Source: Ganoderma boninense (lineage: Eukaryota > Basidiomycota > Agaricomycetes > Polyporales > Polyporaceae). Taken from it: a stretch of 64,000 bases of DNA. Each line of letters begins with the position of its first letter. Position 1 is the stretch's first letter. The position numbers and the translations under genes were made by a program. The notes under the pieces were generated by a model. That model was not told the DNA's origin. It worked only from the letters and a program-made list of their open reading frames with translations, and did no database searches. The stretch is from the NCBI GenBank assembly GCA_002900995.3, contig CM035310.1:186001-250000 (forward strand), given 5' to 3'. This document shows, one piece after another, positions 40,757 through 50,491 of this stretch.

Positions 40757-41009
40757 CACTTCGGGGGTTTCGTCATGTTGGACCGGACAACATGCCTGTT
40801 AGAATAGAATTCAGTAGCTAAAACAATGTAACGAATGTTGAATCACTTAATGTTTGAAATTTAATCCGGGACTTGAGCCGGTTTAAAATTTCTTATGTTC
40901 TCCTGCATGTTGCGCCGCGCAACATTGCATTCAGCAATTGAATTGTTCCCTGGAAGAAAAGTCAAGACAACGTTGCAACCGTGGTGCGGGCCAACATTTG
41001 AAAGATTAT
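40757..41009 (+). repeat. Left terminal inverted repeat
   Basis: Essentially identical to the reverse complement of 50241-50491. Contains many subterminal CAACAT/ATGTTG words, including the small palindrome CATGTTG...CAACATG at about 40776-40796 and GTTGCGCCGCGCAAC near 40907. Such clusters often act as transposase binding sites. Confidence 0.75.
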
Positions 41010-41102
41010 CTGGGCCCAAATGTAAATCAACATATGAAATGTCGATTCACCTGTAAACGCGGTCAACATTTCAGCTTTAATCCGGATTTTCGGTTGTCGG
41101 GA

Positions 41103-41238
41103 GATGATCGGCCGCTCGTCTCCCGCTCATCGGCCGCTCGTCTCCCGCTCATCTCCCACTCATCGGCCGCTCGTCTCCCGCTCATCGGCCGCTTACCTGC
41201 CGCTTATCGGCCCTTCGTCTCCCGCTCATCGGGCCGCT
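41103..41238 (+). repeat. Minisatellite, unit about 22 bp
   Basis: About six imperfect copies of a unit like CGGCCGCTCGTCTCCCGCTCAT, just inside the left terminal repeat. Confidence 0.8.
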
Positions 41239-42436
41239 CACCACCGTTACAATGTGACGCAAGGCGTCACGTTCTACGATACGCCCGACGTCATCGGGAC
41301 TTTGAAGTTCCAAGAAAAGCTTACCATTCAATACGATGTCGATTTTTACGGCCGGGAAAACGTCAGAAAGACGACAACGTTCGCGTCAACATTTTCGACC
41401 CATTACAATTCGACATCCTGGCTCTACAACTCGACAAAGGTTTCAAGAAACACCGCGCCCGCTCTCGACGCGCCGACCACCCGCTGAGTGCCCGCCGGAT
41501 GCCTCACGCGGCGCCGCGCCCTTGTTCGCGCTGGTCGCGTTCTTCGCCTGGATCGCCGTGTTCTGGCGCGCGGCGACGCGTGAGCTGAACGCTTCACCGG
41601 GCTGTAGGCGAGTTAGTACAGGCGCGAACGGCGGCTCCAGAACGTATCAACGCACCCAGGGGGAGTGGAGGAGCGACGCGCCTGGTCGCGCCCGGCCTGC
41701 AGGCCCTGGAAGGCCATAATAGGCTGTAATAGGTCAGTATTGAGCCACAGAGAGAGCTGAGAGAGGTGGCAACATACCATGTACTTGATGATGTTCTGAA
41801 TGACAATTGGAAGCATTGTGAAGTTGTTGTGAATGAGGGGGAGAAGCTGGAGTGAGGAGATGGTGGTGGATGAAAGGAAGGAGGAGAAGGAGGGCGCCCT
41901 TGTTGAAATCTTCTTCTGTGCGAGAAAGTTGGGGCCCAGGGACTGGGTGGTGTGATCCCGAGAAAGTATGGACATATACATATGTTTTGATATGTCAAAA
42001 ACAACATTCAAAGCGCACCATAGGCCGGCAAAGACATTGGTCCTATAAATCCAATGGAGCGTCGCACCTCCATTTGTCTGCTTGGAAGGTGACATTACGA
42101 AAGGACAAGACAGTGAACGTTACGTCGCCGAAGCACAAGCTACCGCAGTGGGAGCGTTACACGAACTGGGAGCGTTACACGAACGCGTTAGCGTGGTGCT
42201 CCCTCTCGTCTTCCCTGCGTTCCTGTCTACCCCGGCACCTGCGTTAACGCTACTCCCCTCCTTGCTAACCCCCTAGTTCTGCATGGGCCCTTATGGTCGT
42301 GCTGGAGCGGAGCTGGCTGAGAAAGCCGAGCTGGGCGACGAGGCTGAGGGACGAGGGGGTGCTGGGTCGAGAGCGAGGCGGTGGAGCCGTGGATCGAGGG
42401 TCCTCCTGGAGGCCTCCAAGGATGTTGAGTGGTGAG
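41239..42436. other. Element interior, unassigned
   Basis: An open plus-strand frame at 41240-41487 (VTFYDTPDVIGTLKFQEKL) looks protein-like but I do not recognise it and it has no clear start. The remainder to 42436 has only short ORFs. The direct repeat GGGAGCGTTACACGAAC at about 42149 and 42166 is noted. Confidence 0.35.
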
Positions 42437-42890
42437 CTTAGCGGATGGATCTCCGAGCATCATCCTCAAGTCCGAAAAGCCACGCTACAAGGGCGGGACA
42501 TGGCACGTGGAGAGCACGGCGAACGAGCGGATCGTCGCGACGGGCATATACTATTACCACTCCGAGAACGTGGCCGATGGCAAGCTGGTCTTCCGCTAGT
42601 CGCTCGGCGGCGAGAACCGCGAAATGAGTTGACTGTCCGAATAGAGCGACTACCGCGGGTACGGCGTCGTGTGCGGGGTGTACCAGCAGTTGAACCAGGT
42701 GCTCGGAGACGTGCCGACGAGCGAGGGCAAGTGTCTCGCTTTCCCGAACATATACGTGCATCCTTTTGAGCTGGTGGGGAAGATGCATCCAGGAGTGAGG
42801 AAGACCCTGGCGTTCTTCCTCCTGGACCCAACAGAGAGAGTGCTCTGAAAGGGGGCGATACCATTGCAGCGGGGTGAAGCAAACTCCCGG
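42437..42890 (+). pseudogene. DUF4246 C-terminal fragment
   Basis: The plus-strand frame reads KPRYKGGTWHVES, NERIVATGIYYYHSENV, then after in-frame stops (first TAG at 42598) YRGYGVVCGVYQQLNQVLGD, KCLAFPNIYVHPFEL and HPGVRKTLAFFLLDP. This is the order of the conserved C-terminal motifs of the fungal DUF4246 family (PF14033), recognised from memory. Stops and the missing N-terminus make it a dead fragment, probably captured by the mobile element. Confidence 0.7.
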
Positions 42891-44097
42891 CGCGGGCCCA
42901 TAACTGGCGTCGGGGTCAGGAGTCGGATGACCGTTCTCGTCGCGACTGCCAGTGGGCTTGGGTGTGATTCACTACTCTGACAGCGGCGTCGTGTTTAGTC
43001 GCTCCAGGGCAGATATCTCCCGGCGCCAGAATCCTGACGTTGTTGATACTGCGTCGGGAGCATACCCGCCGCCGTGGGCGTACAGCTGGTGCTGTTGGGA
43101 GGCTCGGACTCTCGTGCGTGCGAGTGTGAGACGAATGGACCAAACTGACCATATCGATACACCTGAGCTCGCCTCGCCGACATTTGCGAGAGTACGGTAC
43201 TACAGACACTCCCTCCCGATCATCGTTTAGCGCCCGTGCGTGTCTCGCCCTCCTCCCACAAGTTCACGTTGTAAATTGCTGCACCGCGCAGCCCTCGCTT
43301 CAAACACTATCCCATTCGCTTTCAACAGTGTCCTGGACCTTCGCGGACTGGGAGAGCTGGTGGAGGAGTGCGAGCTGATTGGCGTCCAGCACTGGGGTAG
43401 GCGGCGGGGCTGACCGGAACAGAGGCGGGGGTGGTGTTTGGCTAGATCGAAGGGGAAAAGGAAAAGATTCAGTACCGTGCTGCGGGGCAAACGTGGAGAT
43501 GCTGCTCACCTTGTGTGCAGTATATACTCATCCTAGATTTGTGAACCCGTCGCCGCTGCGCGCGTGTCTTCGAGCAAGGGAAAGCCGTCCGCACGAGACA
43601 AAATGGGAAGTCGGCAAGCGCAGTACGAGGAGCTCACGCGATCGTATGCTGCTGGCCCCGAGATAGCGTCGGGCTATGCCAACATTGAGCAGCTGTAGGC
43701 ATCATGCGCGACAACCCTCAATTCAGTACGGAGGAGACATGCGCTGAAACGATCGATGAGCGACGCACCATCGACGCCAGCCTTGGCGGAGCAGTCCACA
43801 GCCCCGGACAGAGGGTGACGACGGTCATGTATGAGGGAGGGCGCGCGTGGCGCTCGAGTCGCCTGCCCAAGAGGTCGATGACGATGATCTTTGCGCCGTC
43901 GGACGGGCGAAGAGGAAGGCGGTGATGGCGTGGATTCGGCAGAGGCTGTTGACCTCGAACTGTATGCGGGGAGGGGAGGGAGGAGGCACGACAATGAGTC
44001 GGGGACTACGACGACGGGCTGGATAACGTACCGCAGAAATAAAAGGAAAGCGGTCGAAGTGGCGACCGCAATGGGTCGGCAGAGATACCATGCATTG
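42891..44097. other. Element interior, unassigned
   Basis: 43509-43300 (-) is a 69-codon ORF (MSSISTFAPQHG..) that might be a small exon. No other coding support. A minus-strand stretch near 43895-43800 faintly resembles a protein-kinase segment but is not supported. Confidence 0.3.
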
Positions 44098-44172
44098 GGT
44101 CGACACCGCAACACATGAACGCGTGCAGGGTAACGAAAACGGGAAGTGCGTCGGGTCAACACCACGACACAC
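44090..44172 (-). repeat. GGTGTTGACC palindrome pair 1
   Basis: Cores at 44098-44107 (variant GGTCGACACC) and 44154-44163 (GGTCAACACC), 56 nt apart. Arms CATGCATTG/CAACACATG (7 of 9 pairs, one unpaired G) and GTGCGTCG/CGACACAC (7 of 8 pairs, one unpaired A). Read on the minus strand, the mismatches become G-T pairs. Confidence 0.75.
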
Positions 44173-44352
44173 GCTGGGCTGGATGGATGAGGAGACGAGA
44201 GGGAGATGCTGGGAAGATCGGGCCTCGACTCCGCGGAGGCTGTGCCTCGTGGGAATTTGTCAGCCCGACGACAGAGGGTGGCACTGGCATGCGTACGGGC
44301 GCTTTCCCGCGCTGTTCCCACCTTCCTCCTGCGACCCGTCGAGCCCTGGGGT

Positions 44353-44391
44353 TCTCCTCCTCCTCCTCCTCCTCCTCCTCCTCCTCCTCCT
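44353..44391 (+). repeat. Trinucleotide repeat (TCC)n
   Basis: About 13 TCC units immediately before palindrome pair 2. Confidence 0.9.
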
Positions 44392-44392
44392 T

Positions 44393-44493
44393 GGATGTTG
44401 CGGTGTTGACCGCGGCATCTGAACCATCTATGTTCTCTTATTCTGCTCCTGCTCTGCTCTGTTCTGCCCTCAGTGGTGTTGACCATTGAGGGT
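44393..44493 (+). repeat. GGTGTTGACC palindrome pair 2
   Basis: Cores at 44402-44411 and 44475-44484, 73 nt apart. Arms GATGTTGC/GCGGCATC (8 of 8 counting two G-T) and CCCTCAGT/ATTGAGGG (8 of 8 counting one G-T). The second lies directly after a polypyrimidine-AG that could be a splice acceptor. Confidence 0.8.
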
Positions 44494-44880
44494 GCCTACG
44501 AGTCGAAGACACAACTGAAGACACGCCTCGCTGCGAGCAAGCTCGTCAGGAAGTGGCTCGCTCGCCAGGAAGTGGATAACGTTCACTACTGGGTGAGTAT
44601 TCGCACTTTGTGTCCTCCATCAACCCTCGCTATGATTACAATCGTCCTCACGAAACTGTGGTCTACATCAGGCGATCAACGCCGAAGTGGAGGAATATCT
44701 ACGTTCCAAGCCTCTCTGACCCACTCTGCTACGACTTCCACTGGACTAACGTTCCACTGTGCGAGGTATGTTAATTGGATTCATCGCGCCAAGAGTGTCC
44801 CACAGGACTCACGATAAACCTCAGGAAGCAAAGCACGACAGCAAGTTGAAGGAAGCTCGTGAGTGTAGGCTCCACGCTTG
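44485..44880 (+). pseudogene. Possible broken small gene
   Basis: Exon-like stretches separated by good introns: about 44485-44592 (TRLAASKLVRKWLARQEVDN), an intron GTGAGT..CAG to 44672, an exon to about 44765 and another intron to 44822. The first frame ends at a TGA after YLRSKPL, while a shifted frame continues as DPLCYDFHWTNVPLCE and EAKHDSKLKEA, suggesting a one-base frameshift. No initiator ATG. Not recognised. Confidence 0.3.
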
Positions 44881-45066
44881 CTGCTTTGACGCTTGCCACT
44901 TTGACGGGGGACTTGGCTGGGTTCTCTGTACGCTGAGTGCGCTTTCCTTGCCGTCCAGGCATGGTCCGCTCCCAGATGGAAATAGATGGTTGTTTGATCG
45001 ACGATGTCGCACAAAGTACAATTGACCGCTCGCCGTCATAGTGTGTCTAATCACCAGTGTTATCTC

Positions 45067-46237
45067 TCAGCTTCCGTTACGCATTGAATGACATACCGCG
45101 ATACTTTGCACGAGCTCTGTGGGATCATCGCTGTGGACCAGAGTGTCCAGAGGAGGACCTCCTTTACGCTTGTTGAAGACATAAGCCTTCCCATGGTCGC
45201 TGCCGATGATGACCACCCGACGACCCTCGCCGAATATGATTGGCTTCGGCAAGTCTGTACGGGATTTCTCCGCTTTGTAGACCGCTACTGTACCTTCTCG
45301 CGAGTTCGGGTCGTGCAAAGTGAAGCCGCCGGAGTGGGAGATTGCAATAAGCTCTTTCTTTTCGTCAATCGCGGCGAATCCTCTAAGACATTGATCAGAA
45401 AACTCTTCGTTCGAGCACCACATGTTAACTTACATTGGGTCCACGAATGACATGGGAGACCCGACGCAGTTGCCAGTGTCGCGATCGAGGATGAACCTGT
45501 TGGCGATTAGCGTCTCACCTTATATCATAGACTGTCTTACGTACATCTTTCCGTTGTGGAGGCTGAGGACACGCACAGAGCCATCCTCCCGAATCGACAT
45601 CGCCCTCGGGATGAACACATGCGAGCGTTGACCCCAGGAGTTCCACAAATATACTAATCCCCGCCTCATACACCAGTCGATGCAGGCGACAGAACAATCC
45701 AACAATCCAACCACAATACGAAAGCCATCATCTTGCGCTACGGAGACTGCGCTGATAATTTCGGCACTCCCCGGCATCCGAATACGTGCTAACACAGTGA
45801 ATTTCTAACCACAATCATTGATCCAGTGTATGCGCCGATGTGCTGGCCAGAGTATACTACGTACCTCATCAGAGCCAGACCAAATCACCAGAAAACCTAA
45901 GGCGGTACCCGATCAACAGTTCGTTTTCGTCCATCCAGTGCAGTATCGTCACGGCCCTGTAGACCTCTGGGTAGAAATTCGGTATCTCAAGGGGGACGGT
46001 AGTCTTGAGCACGCGGATTTCAGGGCCTCGCTTGCCTGTATACATTGTCAGTAACATAAATTGCATGATCAACCTACGAGACTCACCTCCGTAGGCAAAC
46101 ATCAGACCGTCAGGAGAGATTGCGATGGCGTAGATGGGCTGCCCCAGATCGGTAATGCGGTTTACGAGCTGGTAGGAAGCTGGCGAGCTGCCATCGTCAT
46201 CTCCAGAGCTTCGAAGGCCTTCAACGAAGTTGAACAT
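45067..46237 (-). CDS. WD40/propeller-like hypothetical protein
   Basis: Five exons on the minus strand: 46087-46237, 45889-46035, 45545-45788, 45434-45496, 45067-45382; 921 nt, 306 aa, in frame. Repeating blade-like motifs are seen: PIYAIAISPDGLMFAYGG, AVSVAQDDGFRIVVGLLD, SIREDGSVRVLSLHNGKMF, DRDTGNCVGSP, AISHSGGFTLHDPNS, GRRVVIIGSDHGKAYVFN. This is typical of a beta-propeller. About six blades fit, so it could be complete or slightly truncated. Intron 2 needs a GTGATT donor; using the GTACGT donor 24 nt further on would leave an in-frame stop. The ATG at 46237 is the first plausible Met. Palindrome pair 3 lies about 60-125 nt upstream, in the leader. It sits inside the putative mobile element as possible cargo. 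Function unknown. Confidence 0.65.
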
Positions 46238-46290
46238 GAAGCCGACGTTGCAGGTGTGTCGTTCAAGGGGGAAGATGATGTTGCGGAGAG

Positions 46291-46371
46291 GTTCGTAGAG
46301 GTCAACACCTCGGCGAACTTGAAGAATGATAGACGAACGGAGATTCGTTGAGGTCAACACCTCAGCGAATT
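46291..46371 (-). repeat. GGTGTTGACC palindrome pair 3
   Basis: Cores at 46300-46309 and 46352-46361 (GGTCAACACC on plus), 52 nt apart. Arms GTTCGTAGA/TCGGCGAAC (8 of 9 with one G-T) and GATTCGTTGA/TCAGCGAATT (10 of 10 with two G-T). The two hairpins have nearly the same arms. Confidence 0.8.
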
Positions 46372-46778
46372 GGTTGTGGATGGATGAGTAGCGATGACGA
46401 TGAGAGGATGAGGGGATGAGAGGGCGACTAGCGCAGGTAACGTAGGAAGGGAGTGAGAACCAGGGGAGTGAGAACCAGCCTCGGATATGAGTGGCGACTA
46501 GGCGGGGAAGCAAAACGTCGGTGAATGCATCTTTATCTTCGGGTTGACGCTCATAGGTACCGGAGGATCTCTCTTTTGTTTCCGCGCATCATCGTCTTAT
46601 TGTTAGTGCTACCTTCCCGGTTCTCGCTATTGGCAATGCCGCTTCCTTATTGGTGGTTATTGTCGTTGTCGTTCTCGTCGTCTGCTTCGTTATCGTCGTC
46701 GCGTCATCATTTTCATCTCATTGTCAATACTCTTATATTGGCTAGGAGCGAAGAGTGTCGTATTGTCAAGTTCGCATC

Positions 46779-47893
46779 ATGCCCTCTACTACTCGCTTTC
46801 CGTCTCCTCCTTTAGATTTGAATCCTCTGCCACGGCCCTGCGTCTTGCTCTTCCTGCAAACCCCGCTTTCTCACTTTCGACCTCGTCGTGCTGTTCTCTG
46901 CCAGACAGAGCTGCGCCCGTTCTCTCGCTGGGCTCGAGACCGTGCGCACCCCTACGGCCAAGGTCGCGTTGCTACCCCAGTCCGTTCAGCGACTCCTTCT
47001 CCTTCTTCCCGTCAAGGCACTCCGGGCCCATCTCGTTCCCGTCACGGCACTCCGGGCCCATCTCGTTCGCGCGCCAATACCCCAGGACCATCCCAGCCAA
47101 AAAGCGTTCACTTTCCAACTGAGACGCCTCCCTCTGACGAAGGTAGCGGGAACGAGGATGATCACGAAATCACGGAGCTTCGAGCCCCGGACGCCGACGG
47201 CTTCATCCCTAAACCTCTCGGCGAGGTTGGCCGTAGAGAGCGAGGGTACTCTCTTCAGACAATCCTAGGTTGGGACGATCCCATATACAAGCCATTGAGA
47301 AAGCAGGTCAACGTCGATATCAGCAATTACCTCGACCATTCGCTGAGCGCGTCCAACCAGCCGGCTGGTTTAGTGAAGGGCTTAACAAAAGTGGTGAGTT
47401 TCTTTCATTCTGACATTAGTTCCCGCTCCCAACACACGTCGTAGATTGCTGCCAAGCACCCCATCGTCTCACGGTTCCGTGATGGCTGGCCCATCGCCGA
47501 CATGATCCATCTTCGCCTTAAATATACTTCCGGTCGTAGTCGGCGTGGTCTTCCAAAGACACCGCAAGGGGAGGAGTACCCGAAAAATATTTCAGAGGCT
47601 TTGGTGAGTGGGGGATCTCCATCCAGTCCGTTATCATAAATTTACATGCGGTACAGAAAACTTTAGAGCGAGGTAAGGCGGTCGAGCGTCGCCCAGAGCC
47701 GGAGGTTGCACGAGACGTTGCGCGGGCAACGAGGGCGCAGACTAGAGTACGAGAGGAGAGCGAAATGGACGGCCCATCCCCGGTCTTAATGGGTGTCAAT
47801 AAGAAAGGCGAGAGCAAGCAAGTCTCGAGCCGTGGAAAGGGAAAGGCGAGGGAGGAGGAGAACAGCGACTCGGAGTACGATGACGATGATTAG
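46779..47893 (+). CDS. Mushroom orphan protein, common near KDZ transposases
   Basis: Three exons: 46779-47393, 47445-47603, 47657-47893; 1011 nt, 336 aa, in frame. The N-terminal 130 residues are low complexity, with GTPGPSRSR repeated twice and NTPGPSQPK. A conserved core follows: FIPKPLGEVGRRERGYSLQ, TILGWDDPIYKPLRKQVN, then FRDGWPIADMIHLRLKYTS. The C-terminus is charged and ends in an acidic YDDDD. From memory, proteins with this core (IPKP.GE.GR..GY.L...LGWD) are multiplied in agaricomycetes and often lie beside KDZ transposase genes; function unknown. The gene looks intact, unlike the neighbouring transposase. The acidic tail and KGKAREEE stretch suggest a nuclear protein. Confidence 0.7.
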
Positions 47894-47980
47894 CTTGTAT
47901 CGCGGTTGTGCTGTCGCAGGACGACGATAAGCGTGTAGTCGCGGGACGACTCAGATGCCAGTGTATGTCGCGGGTTATAA

Positions 47981-48065
47981 TGATGACGGGTCAACACCAC
48001 GATCACCTTGAATGCAGGCTGAAGTACGCGTCGGAACATTCGCAGCGGTCAACACCGCTGCGAAC
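47981..48065 (-). repeat. GGTGTTGACC palindrome pair 4
   Basis: Cores at 47989-47998 and 48047-48056 (GGTCAACACC on plus), 58 nt apart. The second has perfect 8-bp arms TTCGCAGC/GCTGCGAA. The first has a weaker stem of about six pairs with small bulges. Confidence 0.8.
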
Positions 48066-48220
48066 ACTTGAAATGAAATGTGCGGTGCCAGGAGTGGACG
48101 TCGGACTTTGGCCTGCTGGTGGCGGTGCTGTGTGGCGGTGCTGTGTCCCACGTAGGCGCCTTGTACATCCGCTGGTTCACCGAAGTCCCTCCGTCGTTGG
48201 TCTGGTCTCCGTTCTCCCCC

Positions 48221-48296
48221 CACCTTACAGTGTTGACCCTAAGGTGATGGCTCTTGCAGATGGTTCGTCACCCTCGACGGTGTCGACCGCCGGGGT
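48221..48296 (+). repeat. GGTGTTGACC palindrome pair 5
   Basis: Cores at 48229-48238 (AGTGTTGACC) and 48279-48288 (GGTGTCGACC), 50 nt apart. Arms CACCTTA/TAAGGTG (7 of 7 beyond one mismatch) and CCTCGAC/GCCGGGG (6 of 7 with one G-T). Confidence 0.75.
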
Positions 48297-48456
48297 TCAA
48301 TCTAATCTAAGCGACGTCCGCAGCTCCGCTGAACACCCCATCAGCCCGCTTCGTTCTAGAAGAAAAGCGGCGTATCGCACCCTGGCCCTCTTCTTGACGG
48401 ATTCAGGCAGATATTCGGCATCCGCTGAGGAAGCCAACAGAACAGGAAATCTGTGA
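48247..48456 (+). CDS. Small ORF overlapping palindrome pair 5
   Basis: 69-codon ORF starting MALADGSSPSTV. Its frame covers the second palindrome of pair 5. No homologue recognised; may be non-coding. Confidence 0.2.
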   Translation: MALADGSSPSTVSTAGVQSNLSDVRSSAEHPISPLRSRRKAAYRTLALFLTDSGRYSASAEEANRTGNL

Positions 48457-48878
48457 CCTTCGACCGCTCCGCGGCCGTTGTCCGCGATGCTAAAACCGAC
48501 GTCGACCGGCAAATTTCAGTTCCAGGTACCCGTCCTGGACGAGCTCCTGCTCCCTTTCTGCCCCGCTTCTGCCGCCATCCCGCTACGTTACCCCACCTCC
48601 CCGTCGCATCGCCCGAACGCTATTTCATTCGTTCGCCCTCCTCGCTATTCTCTCCCGTGCGCTCCGAGCGCCCTCTTGTACCGTACCAGAACAACGAGTA
48701 AAATAAACGCGGCGGTCACGAGCGCAACGACCTCTCAACTCGGAACAAGGGAAAACCAATCTTGGAAACTGAGAATCGGGTGGCTGTGCTTGTCTTGGTC
48801 TCTTAGGGCGCGCCAATCGACTTGCCGACCACCACGACCATCTCGTCCCATCTACCACTCCCTCTGCCCTCCTGCCCA

Positions 48879-48950
48879 CTGCTGTCGGTGTTGACCGCAG
48901 TAGATCTTCTCCCTTGCTGTTCTCCTGCTGTCGGTGTTGACCACAGTAGT
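48879..48950 (+). repeat. GGTGTTGACC palindrome pair 6
   Basis: Cores at 48887-48896 and 48933-48942, 46 nt apart. Arms CTGCTGT/ACAGTAG (second, 7 of 7 with one G-T) and CTGCTGT-like/GCAGTAG (first, 7 of 7 with two G-T), each with one unpaired C before the core. The pair ends 40 nt before the ATG of the KDZ-like frame. Confidence 0.8.
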
Positions 48951-48982
48951 GTGGCTTTGTTTTTCTTCTGGTCCTCTCACCG

Positions 48983-50141
48983 ATGCCTGAGCGAGCAAGC
49001 ACACGCGCCCGTCGACAAGCTCGATACCCCACACAGGAACCGGAAGAGAATGTGGCCGACCGTCTCGCACAACAAGTTATGGCAATGACTATCGCAGACG
49101 AGGCTCCCGACCCCAACCCGCAGCCAGACAGGCTTTGGATGCCTCGAGCGCGGTATCAGAGGGCAAGACCCCTTCCTGAACCTGCTGAACCTCCTTCGAA
49201 TGCCGCCATCTCAACGATTATCATGGATGCATTCCAGGGGCTGTCGGGGTCCATGTCACTTCCTGCAGCTCCTCTGCCTCCTGTCCCATCCATTCCTCCG
49301 ACCGCTTCCTCCACCACGTCTCGGAACAGCGCTTGTCCTATGCTATCGTCTTCCCGCGAACATGTATCTCTCTCGAGTCCTCCATTATCGTCCCGACCTC
49401 TCGAAGAGGAGGAACGCCCGCTCGACGTCCTCGTCGGAACGCTGCGCAGAGGCAAATCGAGGATCAGCTCAGGTCTGCCGCGTTGATTCACGAAGATCTA
49501 TGCCTTTGTGAGGAGATAACAAATCGGCAGCCAACCCTCCAAGTCTTGTATGAAACTTCGCCGCAGAATCCAGAACGTCACAACAGGCATCGACTACTCA
49601 ACCGCCGCGATGAGCGGGTGCAAAACCAAGCGCGCTGAGCTTCTCGCACGCTGTACCCAGGTCCGGCAGGTAGTTGCGGATTGGAGTCAGATTTGTCTTC
49701 CAACGGAGCCTAGAAAGGTCGACACGAGTACGTTTTTATTTCGGCTGCACATTGGCTAAGACGAAGCTGATAGAATCATAGGTCGCCACTTTGAACGACC
49801 TATTGATCGCCATACCGAGCTCACCCAGGCATGCGGCTGCTAGGGATGGTCTGTCAGGTCATCATGGGAATTAGTCGGCGCGGTGGCGACTTCGTCATGG
49901 GCATGCTTACGATTATCCTCTCCTTCATTTCCAACCATCTCGGCGATACAGACACCAATCTACCTGGGCAGACATTGAATCAATTACCTACCACCATTGA
50001 GACTATAGCGTCTTGGTTCCGTTTCGATGGCAAGCTCACTGTCATGCAGTCTGTCCCTGTTGCCACGCCAACTATCCTCCTCGTGACGGTGCCAGTTATC
50101 CTTCGAAGTGTCACAACCAGTCAACTCCCGGGTCCACATGT
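48983..50141 (+). pseudogene. KDZ-type transposase N-terminus, frameshifted, runs into gap
   Basis: The ATG at 48983 opens MPERASTRARRQARYPTQEP and a proline/serine-rich region. A coiled-coil-like stretch (RQIEDQLRSAALIHEDLCL, then AELLARCTQVRQVVADW) follows in shifted frames. Next come CQVIMGISRRGGDFVMGMLT and QLPTTIETIASWFRFDGKLT. After another one-base shift comes the cysteine cluster VCPCCHANYPPRDG with YPSKC and a further Cys, cut by the N gap. This order matches, from memory, the CxC1-type cysteine cluster that precedes the KDZ (Kyakuja-Dileera-Zisupton) transposase domain in mushroom DNA transposons. At least two frameshifts suggest a dead copy unless they are assembly errors. The catalytic domain is not in the sequence. 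Confidence 0.6.
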
Positions 50142-50241
50142 NNNNNNNNNNNNNNNNNNNNNNNNNNNNNNNNNNNNNNNNNNNNNNNNNNNNNNNNNNN
50201 NNNNNNNNNNNNNNNNNNNNNNNNNNNNNNNNNNNNNNNNN
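50142..50241. other. Assembly gap of 100 N
   Basis: Exactly 100 N, the usual placeholder for a gap of unknown size. It cuts the KDZ-like gene just after a cysteine codon and abuts the right terminal repeat. Confidence 0.99.
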
Positions 50242-50491
50242 ATCTTTCAAATGTTGGCCCGCACCACGGTTGCAACGTTGTCTTGACTTTTCTTCCAGGG
50301 AACAATTCAATTGCTGAATGCAATGTTGCGCGGCGCAACATGCAGGAGAACATAAGAAATTTTAAACCGGCTCAAGTCCCGGATTAAATTTCAAACATTA
50401 AGTGATTCAACATTCGTTACATTGTTTTAGCTACTGAATTCTATTCTAACAGGCATGTTGTCCGGTCCAACATGACGAAACCCCCGAAGTG
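50241..50491 (-). repeat. Right terminal inverted repeat
   Basis: Reverse complement of 40757-41009, starting directly at the gap edge. The outer end is CCCCCGAAGTG followed by AAA. Confidence 0.75.

What the first reader, a model, noticed from the sequence alone, without database searches (positions are those of the whole stretch)
44090..48950. Twelve palindromes with a fixed GGTGTTGACC core and arms that change together
Cores lie at 44098, 44154, 44402, 44475, 46300, 46352, 47989, 48047, 48229, 48279, 48887 and 48933. Nine are exactly GGTGTTGACC or its complement; the other three differ by one base. The arms outside the core share no sequence between loci (TTCGCAGC, CCCTCAGT, GATGTTGC, CACCTTA, CTGCTGT and others), yet in nearly every copy the left arm pairs with the right over 6-10 bp. 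That is the mark of selection or of a copying mechanism acting on structure: core conserved in sequence, arms conserved only in complementarity. Recombinase sites normally show the reverse, with conserved arms and a free spacer. I know of no named element with this design. Candidate explanations are RNA hairpins with a GUUG loop, protein binding sites, or footprints of an enzyme that makes or targets palindromes.
Basis: seen in the sequence. Interest (0 to 1): 0.88.

Follow-up and report, generated by a model that had tools for sequence, protein, structure and literature searches.

The report
Paired RNA-like hairpins heading transposon genes
Inside a large jumping-DNA family of a mushroom-type fungus, several genes start with two short hairpins that share a fixed tip and have stems that differ from gene to gene but still pair, which looks like a shared control switch for the element's genes.

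Summary
All twelve cores are where stated (nine exact, three with one change) and the arms pair far beyond chance. They sit inside an EnSpm/CACTA-like DNA transposon (window 40757-50491: CACTT...AAGTG ends, 250-bp inverted repeats, 3-bp target duplication, Tnp2-type transposase) of a fungal genome; copies reach 45.8 kb. The fixed part is nearer GTGTTGAC than the 10-mer. Hairpins come in same-strand pairs 46-73 bp apart. In five leader families where a gene start could be read, the pair faces the gene and precedes its ATG or a 5'-leader intron. Arms are better conserved than their surroundings, and stems hold more G.T than A.C mismatches on the sense strand. Best reading: paired stem-loops in 5' leaders of the element's genes, recognised through the tip, probably by a protein in trans. 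Pairing and position are shown; transcription and function are inferred. Some pairs have no gene start behind them, and part of the strand bias is arm composition. A DNA-level binding site is the main rival. Copies of the 10-mer outside these elements mostly lack paired arms. No Rfam match was found, and no description in the papers searched.

The parts
40757..41006 (+). left terminal inverted repeat (CACTTCGGGGG...), 3-bp target duplication AAA just outside
   Evidence: identical over 250 bp to the inverted right end; AAA on both sides
50242..50491 (-). right terminal inverted repeat, directly beside a 100-N assembly gap (50142-50241)
44088..44117 (-). hairpin, core GGTGTCGACC, one-base bulge 5' of the core; second of a pair
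44144..44173 (-). hairpin, core GGTGTTGACC, one-base bulge; first of the pair
44392..44421 (+). hairpin, arm GATGTTGC / GCGGCATC; first of a pair
44465..44494 (+). hairpin, arm CCCTCAGT / ATTGAGGG; second of the pair
46290..46319 (-). hairpin, second of the pair before the minus-strand ATG at 46237-46235
46342..46371 (-). hairpin, first of that pair
47979..48008 (-). hairpin, weakest stem of the twelve (score 4.0); no gene start found behind this pair
48037..48066 (-). hairpin, perfect 11-bp stem with 4-nt loop; pair mate of 47989
48219..48248 (+). hairpin, core AGTGTTGACC; first of a pair; no gene start found behind this pair
48269..48298 (+). hairpin, core GGTGTCGACC; second of the pair
48877..48906 (+). 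hairpin before the presumed Tnp2 start, one-base bulge; first of the pair
48923..48952 (+). hairpin before the presumed Tnp2 start, one-base bulge; second of the pair, ATG at 48983
48983..50141 (+). presumed 5' part of the Tnp2-type transposase gene, cut by the assembly gap; that the ATG at 48983 belongs to Tnp2 rests on position alone
   Evidence: window 49760-50144 matches the tnp2 exon of the 45.8-kb copy in three pieces at 87-92%, one piece with a stop; that exon has Transposase_21 at E 5.9e-6, below the curated cut-off
45872..46237 (-). minus-strand open frame from ATG 46237-46235 (MFNFVEGL...), no Pfam match
46250..46386 (-). 137-bp leader segment with a hairpin pair, identical to the leader of the 545-aa-family gene in the 45.8-kb copy
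   Evidence: C1:3071287-3071423, 100%; C13:1061222-1061358, 99%

Best explanation
The palindromes are paired stem-loops in the 5' leaders of genes of an EnSpm/CACTA-type DNA transposon family. Each has a fixed apical motif, about N-GU-GUHG-AC-N', on a stem whose sequence is free as long as it pairs. Shown: location in the elements, pairing with compensatory change, pair spacing, same-strand orientation before gene starts in five leader families, and better conservation than the sequence around them. Inferred: that they are transcribed, fold as RNA, and are bound through the tip by one trans-acting protein (element-encoded or host) that controls translation, export or stability of the element's mRNAs together; two copies per leader would give strong or cooperative binding.
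For: Confinement: 24 of 27 genome-wide GTGTTGAC pairs lie in five TIR-bounded copies; the reversed control pattern gives 4. Strong 4-nt-loop hairpins, both strands counted, are 4.7-10.3 per 10 kb inside four copies against 0-1.85 outside. Covariation: 65 cells changed on both sides against 19.8 +- 4.0 shuffled, chosen rows. Position: the stem ends 14 nt before ATG (MDSTYF gene) and 33 nt before ATG (presumed Tnp2); the core ends 62 nt before ATG 46237; in the 545-aa-family and kinase-like genes the pair precedes a 5'-leader splice donor (GTATGT, GTACG or GTGAG) in two diverged copies each (starts and splice sites read by eye). Conservation: arms 62-82% against spacers 35-52% and flanks 30-55% in five leader families. 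Strand: 48 G.T against 15 A.C at the inner eight positions of 43 distinct hairpins, where flank composition predicts 0.92:1; by cluster 10 of 15 G.T-richer, 4 A.C-richer, 1 tie, p 0.019; sense RNA more stable than antisense, loop-corrected, in 30 of 43.
Against: No transcript data. Arms mispaired between clusters already give G.T:A.C 2.1:1, so part of the strand bias lies in arm composition; hairpins are related, so p values are optimistic. In the conservation test the fixed core anchors the alignment next to the arms, which favours them. Pair 48229/48279 and its relatives face the 3' end of another gene or nothing recognisable, and 47989/48047 has no gene start. The sister pairs on C9 appear only when the third loop base is left free (51 pairs against 21 in the reversed control; not), and their arms were not read. 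No pair was listed near the sister 545-aa homologues (C9:1722293-1723807, C10:2190082-2192100) or near the two 42-43% Tnp2 homologues. The first 21.8 kb of the 45.8-kb copy (fungal kinases) and the C11 copy have no pair. No binding protein was identified.
Confidence: 0.57

Rival explanations
1. DNA-level binding sites: an element-encoded DNA-binding protein (like TNPA of En/Spm) or a host factor binds the double-stranded dyad in the promoters, and the arms matter as dyad or extruded cruciform.
For: CACTA elements of plants carry subterminal repeats that can form stem-loops and are bound by TNPA-like proteins (PMC2613891, passages seen). Several pairs stand back to back, 180-290 bp apart, as in shared promoters, and in two copies a pair lies within 0.6-0.9 kb of an element end.
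Against: In the window copy the sites are internal; arms differ in sequence between genes, whereas the soybean stem-loops share a sequence motif; G.T mismatches exceed A.C on the sense strand, though part of that is composition.
Confidence: 0.28
2. Mutational origin: template switching or gene conversion between imperfect palindrome arms keeps them matched, without function.
For: Inverted-repeat correction is a known mutational process (recalled). Some pairs are near duplicates, and one leader was copied whole.
Against: Does not explain the fixed tip, the pair spacing, the position before gene starts or arm conservation above the flanks; exact copies of the core elsewhere mostly have no paired arms.
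Confidence: 0.06
3. Recombination or cassette-exchange sites used as folded single strands (attC-like), which let the elements shuffle gene modules.
For: Structure-conserved arms with a conserved core resemble attC design (recalled); gene content differs between copies.
Against: The one clear recent exchange (137 bp at 46250-46386) has borders 42 and 16 bp outside the arms, not at the cores. No recombinase was seen among the 22 open frames given to Pfam, which were not all frames.
Confidence: 0.04
4. Ordinary repeat debris: chance palindromes within a repeated element.
For: The window copy is 97-99% identical to part of the 45.8-kb copy, so the twelve are not independent of that copy.
Against: 15 arm clusters keep pairing (hairpins had been chosen by core and partner); orthologous hairpins survive where the 545-aa-family protein is 59-60% identical.
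Confidence: 0.02

Closest known systems
CACTA/EnSpm subterminal stem-loop repeats bound by TNPA-like proteins (En/Spm, soybean Tgmt*)
   Same: Same transposon superfamily; many palindromes in one element; a trans-acting element protein is thought to bind them (PMC2613891, passages seen).
   Different: There the stem sequence motif is conserved and the sites are subterminal; here the tip is conserved, stems vary between genes, and sites are paired before gene starts.
TET-bearing and other fungal EnSpm/Plavaka elements (Kojima 2025, PMC12730594)
   Same: CAC..GTG termini and 3-bp TSD for EnSpm (sections 3.1 and 3.2 read).
   Different: Those two sections mention no leader hairpins; whether our elements carry a TET/JBP gene was not looked for.
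Protein-bound mRNA hairpins with a fixed loop and free stem (boxB/N, Smaug recognition element, Rnt1 AGNN hairpins)
   Same: Conserved loop with stem conserved by pairing (recalled).
   Different: Different loop; here two copies per leader on several genes of one DNA transposon; no partner protein known.
attC sites of integrons and hairpin promoters of phage N4
   Same: Structure-conserved, sequence-variable arms (recalled).
   Different: Bacterial; no related enzyme seen among the frames scanned.

Membership tests
EnSpm/CACTA DNA transposon | 5'-CAC..GTG-3' termini | tested here: met
   CACTTCGGGG / CCCCGAAGTG in 4 of 4 copies read
EnSpm/CACTA DNA transposon | 3-bp target-site duplication | tested here: met
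   AAA, GAT, AAT, TAT in 4 of 4 copies read
EnSpm/CACTA DNA transposon | Tnp2-type transposase | tested here: inconclusive
   Transposase_21 E 5.9e-6, 26.1 bits (cut-off 28.6) in one exon; DUF4218 E 1.6e-4, 22 bits (cut-off 27) in the next frame: significant, but below Pfam's cut-offs
EnSpm/CACTA DNA transposon | C(2)C and H(3-4)H motifs between second D and last E | not tested
   gene is split by introns and gaps; not examined
TNPA-type subterminal repeat | sequence-conserved motif repeated near the element ends | tested here: not met
   window copy: hairpins 3.3-8.2 kb from the left end, the last 1.6 kb from the right; unlike arms in 15 clusters. Exceptions: pairs 0.6 kb from the left end of the 18-kb and 10.6-kb copies and 0.9 kb from the right end of the latter. 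The subterminal stretches were not searched for other repeats.
Known Rfam RNA family | covariance-model match | tested here: not met
   0 matches at E up to 1 in window 43900-49100
Cis-regulatory mRNA stem-loop | covarying stem with conserved loop | tested here: met
   (20 chosen rows, all GTGTTGAC); GTCG and GTAG loops in rows not used there
Cis-regulatory mRNA stem-loop | present in the mature transcript | not testable with these tools
   no RNA-seq; inferred from ATG and leader-intron positions
Cis-regulatory mRNA stem-loop | changes expression of the downstream gene | not testable with these tools
   needs reporter assays

The most novel reading that the evidence does not exclude
A giant DNA transposon runs its own post-transcriptional regulon: its core genes, transposase included, carry a tandem pair of GUGUUGAC-tipped stem-loops in the 5' leader, read by one RNA-binding protein (perhaps element-encoded, for example the product of the gene just downstream of Tnp2), so that transposition genes are switched together at RNA level.
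Probability: 0.33. Interest if true: 0.76.

Novelty: new variant of a known kind. Interest (0 to 1): 0.62.

Why it matters
En/Spm-type elements are known to regulate themselves through DNA-bound TNPA (PMC2613891 passages). A shared, covarying RNA structure on several genes of one DNA transposon would be a different layer of transposon self-control in a eukaryote. It also gives a sequence tag (GTGTTGAC pairs with complementary arms) for finding genes that belong to such elements and for separating them from possible later cargo such as the fungal kinases, which lack it in the copy read here. The pairing code and fixed tip make the idea directly testable.

Tried and rejected
Structure model of the 545-aa protein family: mean pLDDT 32, unusable, so no fold search was made. 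Relatives in viral contigs and in the bacterial/archaeal genome set: none confirmed. Pfam on 22 open frames: fungal kinases, a weak kinase (below cut-off) and transposase pieces; 'WD40' for the window's minus-strand gene, used in my notes, is an impression with no Pfam support. 'FunK1' is a recalled name, not from a call; the calls show Pkinase_fungal. Protein searches gave 5 and 4 relatives, two of them named (Ganoderma sinense). Paper searches listed no paper whose title or abstract start describes such hairpins; beyond listings I saw PMC12730594 (abstract, sections 3.1 and 3.2), PMC6431247 (passages) and PMC2613891 (passages). Subscription papers and Repbase were not searchable. Taking the G.T excess as proof of RNA was rejected after the mispaired-arm control.
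Full report
What is there. The twelve cores are as reported. The window is G000:C7:186001-250000 of a 55.6-Mb genome in 74 contigs; introns read by eye and protein relatives in Ganoderma sinense point to a polypore-like fungus. The palindromes lie between two inverted 250-bp repeats at 40757 and 50491 with a 3-bp duplication AAA outside. Intervals with the same ends lie at C1:2312007-2330009 (18.0 kb), C1:3034223-3080071 (45.8 kb), C6:2381687-2392245 (10.6 kb), C11:2331427-2373934 and C13:1051334-1080752. Target duplications are AAA, GAT, AAT and TAT in the four copies read. A tnp2-type transposase is present (Transposase_21 E 5.9e-6; DUF4218 E 1.6e-4; both below the curated cut-offs). CAC..GTG ends and 3-bp TSDs are what Kojima gives for fungal EnSpm (PMC12730594 section 3.1.5). 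The window copy contains a 100-N gap right beside its right repeat, so its true length is uncertain.

Anatomy of the hairpins. In four copies a scan found 57 candidates, 54 of them with a same-strand partner 46-73 bp away, 37 of them distinct. In 20 aligned unbulged rows, all chosen with a GTTG loop, the invariant part is GTGTTGAC; other rows show GTCG or GTAG as the loop, and one has AGTGTTGACC. One leader family has C-G or T-G in place of the outer G-C of the 10-mer. Some families carry a one-base bulge just 5' of the core. With hairpins from four further loci, 43 distinct ones fall into 15 arm clusters.

Statistics. 10 of 12 stem pairs vary on both sides and 94.2% of cells pair against 64.0 +- 2.3% with shuffled partners. 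Choosing rows with good stems inflates the percentage; sliding the partner by 1-3 columns gives 27-46%. Without choosing by stem, 22 of 24 distinct exact cores in the elements score 5 or more, against 5 of 66 outside; left and right arms mispaired between element hairpins reach 5 in 12% of draws. Genome-wide, GTGTTGAC pairs number 27 against 4 for the reversed pattern; 24 of 27 lie in five TIR-bounded copies, the other three at C2:4113767, C9:2360691 (0.9 kb inside a terminal-repeat-like end at C9:2359753) and C13:268349. With the third loop base free there are 51 against 21.

Position. Where a start could be read, pairs face the gene that follows. Presumed Tnp2: hairpins at 48887 and 48933, ATG at 48983; the link of that ATG to the tnp2 exon rests on position. 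MDSTYF gene: ATG 14 nt after the second stem in the 45.8-kb copy; the 18-kb copy keeps the hairpin pair and the protein start but about 2.7 kb apart. 545-aa-family gene: pair, then a GTATGT donor, then ATGTCACA in the 45.8-kb, 18-kb and 10.6-kb copies, the first and second 59-60% identical in protein. Kinase-like gene: pair, then CAAAG|GTACG in the 45.8-kb copy and CAAAG|GTGAG after a different arm family in the 18-kb copy. The minus-strand gene starting at 46237 has a leader identical over 137 bp to that of the 545-aa-family gene. Start codons and splice sites were read by eye. Exceptions: 48229/48279 and relatives face the 3' end of another gene or nothing recognisable; 47989/48047 has no gene start; the families at 44098/44154 and 44402/44475 have candidate genes only in other copies.

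Conservation. Between orthologous leaders of two diverged copies the arms are 78, 82, 62, 68 and 70% identical, spacers 36, 52, 51, 35 and 36%, upstream 37-55% and downstream 30-41%. The shared core anchors the alignment beside the arms, which favours them somewhat.

RNA or DNA. On the sense strand 48 G.T and 15 A.C mismatches occur at the inner eight positions of 43 distinct hairpins. Flank composition predicts 0.92:1, and perfectly paired arms would predict 1:1. Arms mispaired between clusters give 2.1:1, so the bias is partly held in arm composition, although that composition is what wobble pairing would itself produce. By cluster 10 of 15 favour G.T, 4 A.C and 1 is tied (Wilcoxon p 0.019). 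Sense RNA folds more stably in 30 of 43 after correction for the loop. I take this, with orientation and leader introns, as moderate support for RNA.

A prediction. After finding a sister Tnp2 (60% identical) at C9:1735445, I noted that hairpins should be looked for upstream. The relaxed pattern search then listed a minus-strand pair at 1734016 and plus-strand pairs within 1734317-1734450, 238 bp apart and 1.0-1.1 kb before the exon; in the 45.8-kb copy the nearest pair is 0.8 kb before it. The strict pattern had not found them, and their arms were not read. No pair was listed near the sister 545-aa homologues or the more distant Tnp2 homologues at C4:2172756 and C7:3912889.

Mechanism. The most likely reading is a shared leader element with a protein-recognised tip on a free stem, two per mRNA. 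Who binds it is unknown. I found no Rfam family and no report in the papers searched. The nearest known relatives are the subterminal stem-loops of plant CACTA elements (PMC2613891), which differ in position and in which part is conserved.

Noticed in passing
window 46250-46386; C1:3071287-3071423; C13:1061222-1061358: A 137-bp leader with a hairpin pair is 99-100% identical at these places, in front of different genes in the window and in the 45.8-kb copy: a recently copied promoter/leader module.
   Followed up: partly
C1:3034223-3056000 (L060, L061, L034): The first 21.8 kb of the 45.8-kb copy carry at least three frames with fungal protein kinase matches (Pkinase_fungal, E down to 2.4e-22) and no hairpin pairs, as if they were later cargo.
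   Followed up: partly
C11:2331427-2373934: A 42.5-kb interval bounded by terminal repeats identical to the window's has no GTGTTGAC or GTGTNGAC pair; its inside was not read.
   Followed up: no
between the divergent pairs, e.g. C1:3077545-3077739 and window 44173-44392: A second dyad (CCCACGAGGCACAGCCTCGTGGG and variants) lies mid-way in one type of divergent module.
   Followed up: no
C1:3360018-3432220: Two related terminal-repeat ends 72 kb apart in opposite orientation; a single strong hairpin (14 arm pairs) at C1:3364113. Possibly a very large or nested element.
   Followed up: no
C2:4113700-4114200 (L064): A diverged four-hairpin module; by eye mostly C-to-T changes against the 45.8-kb copy, many of which keep pairing through G.T.
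   Followed up: partly
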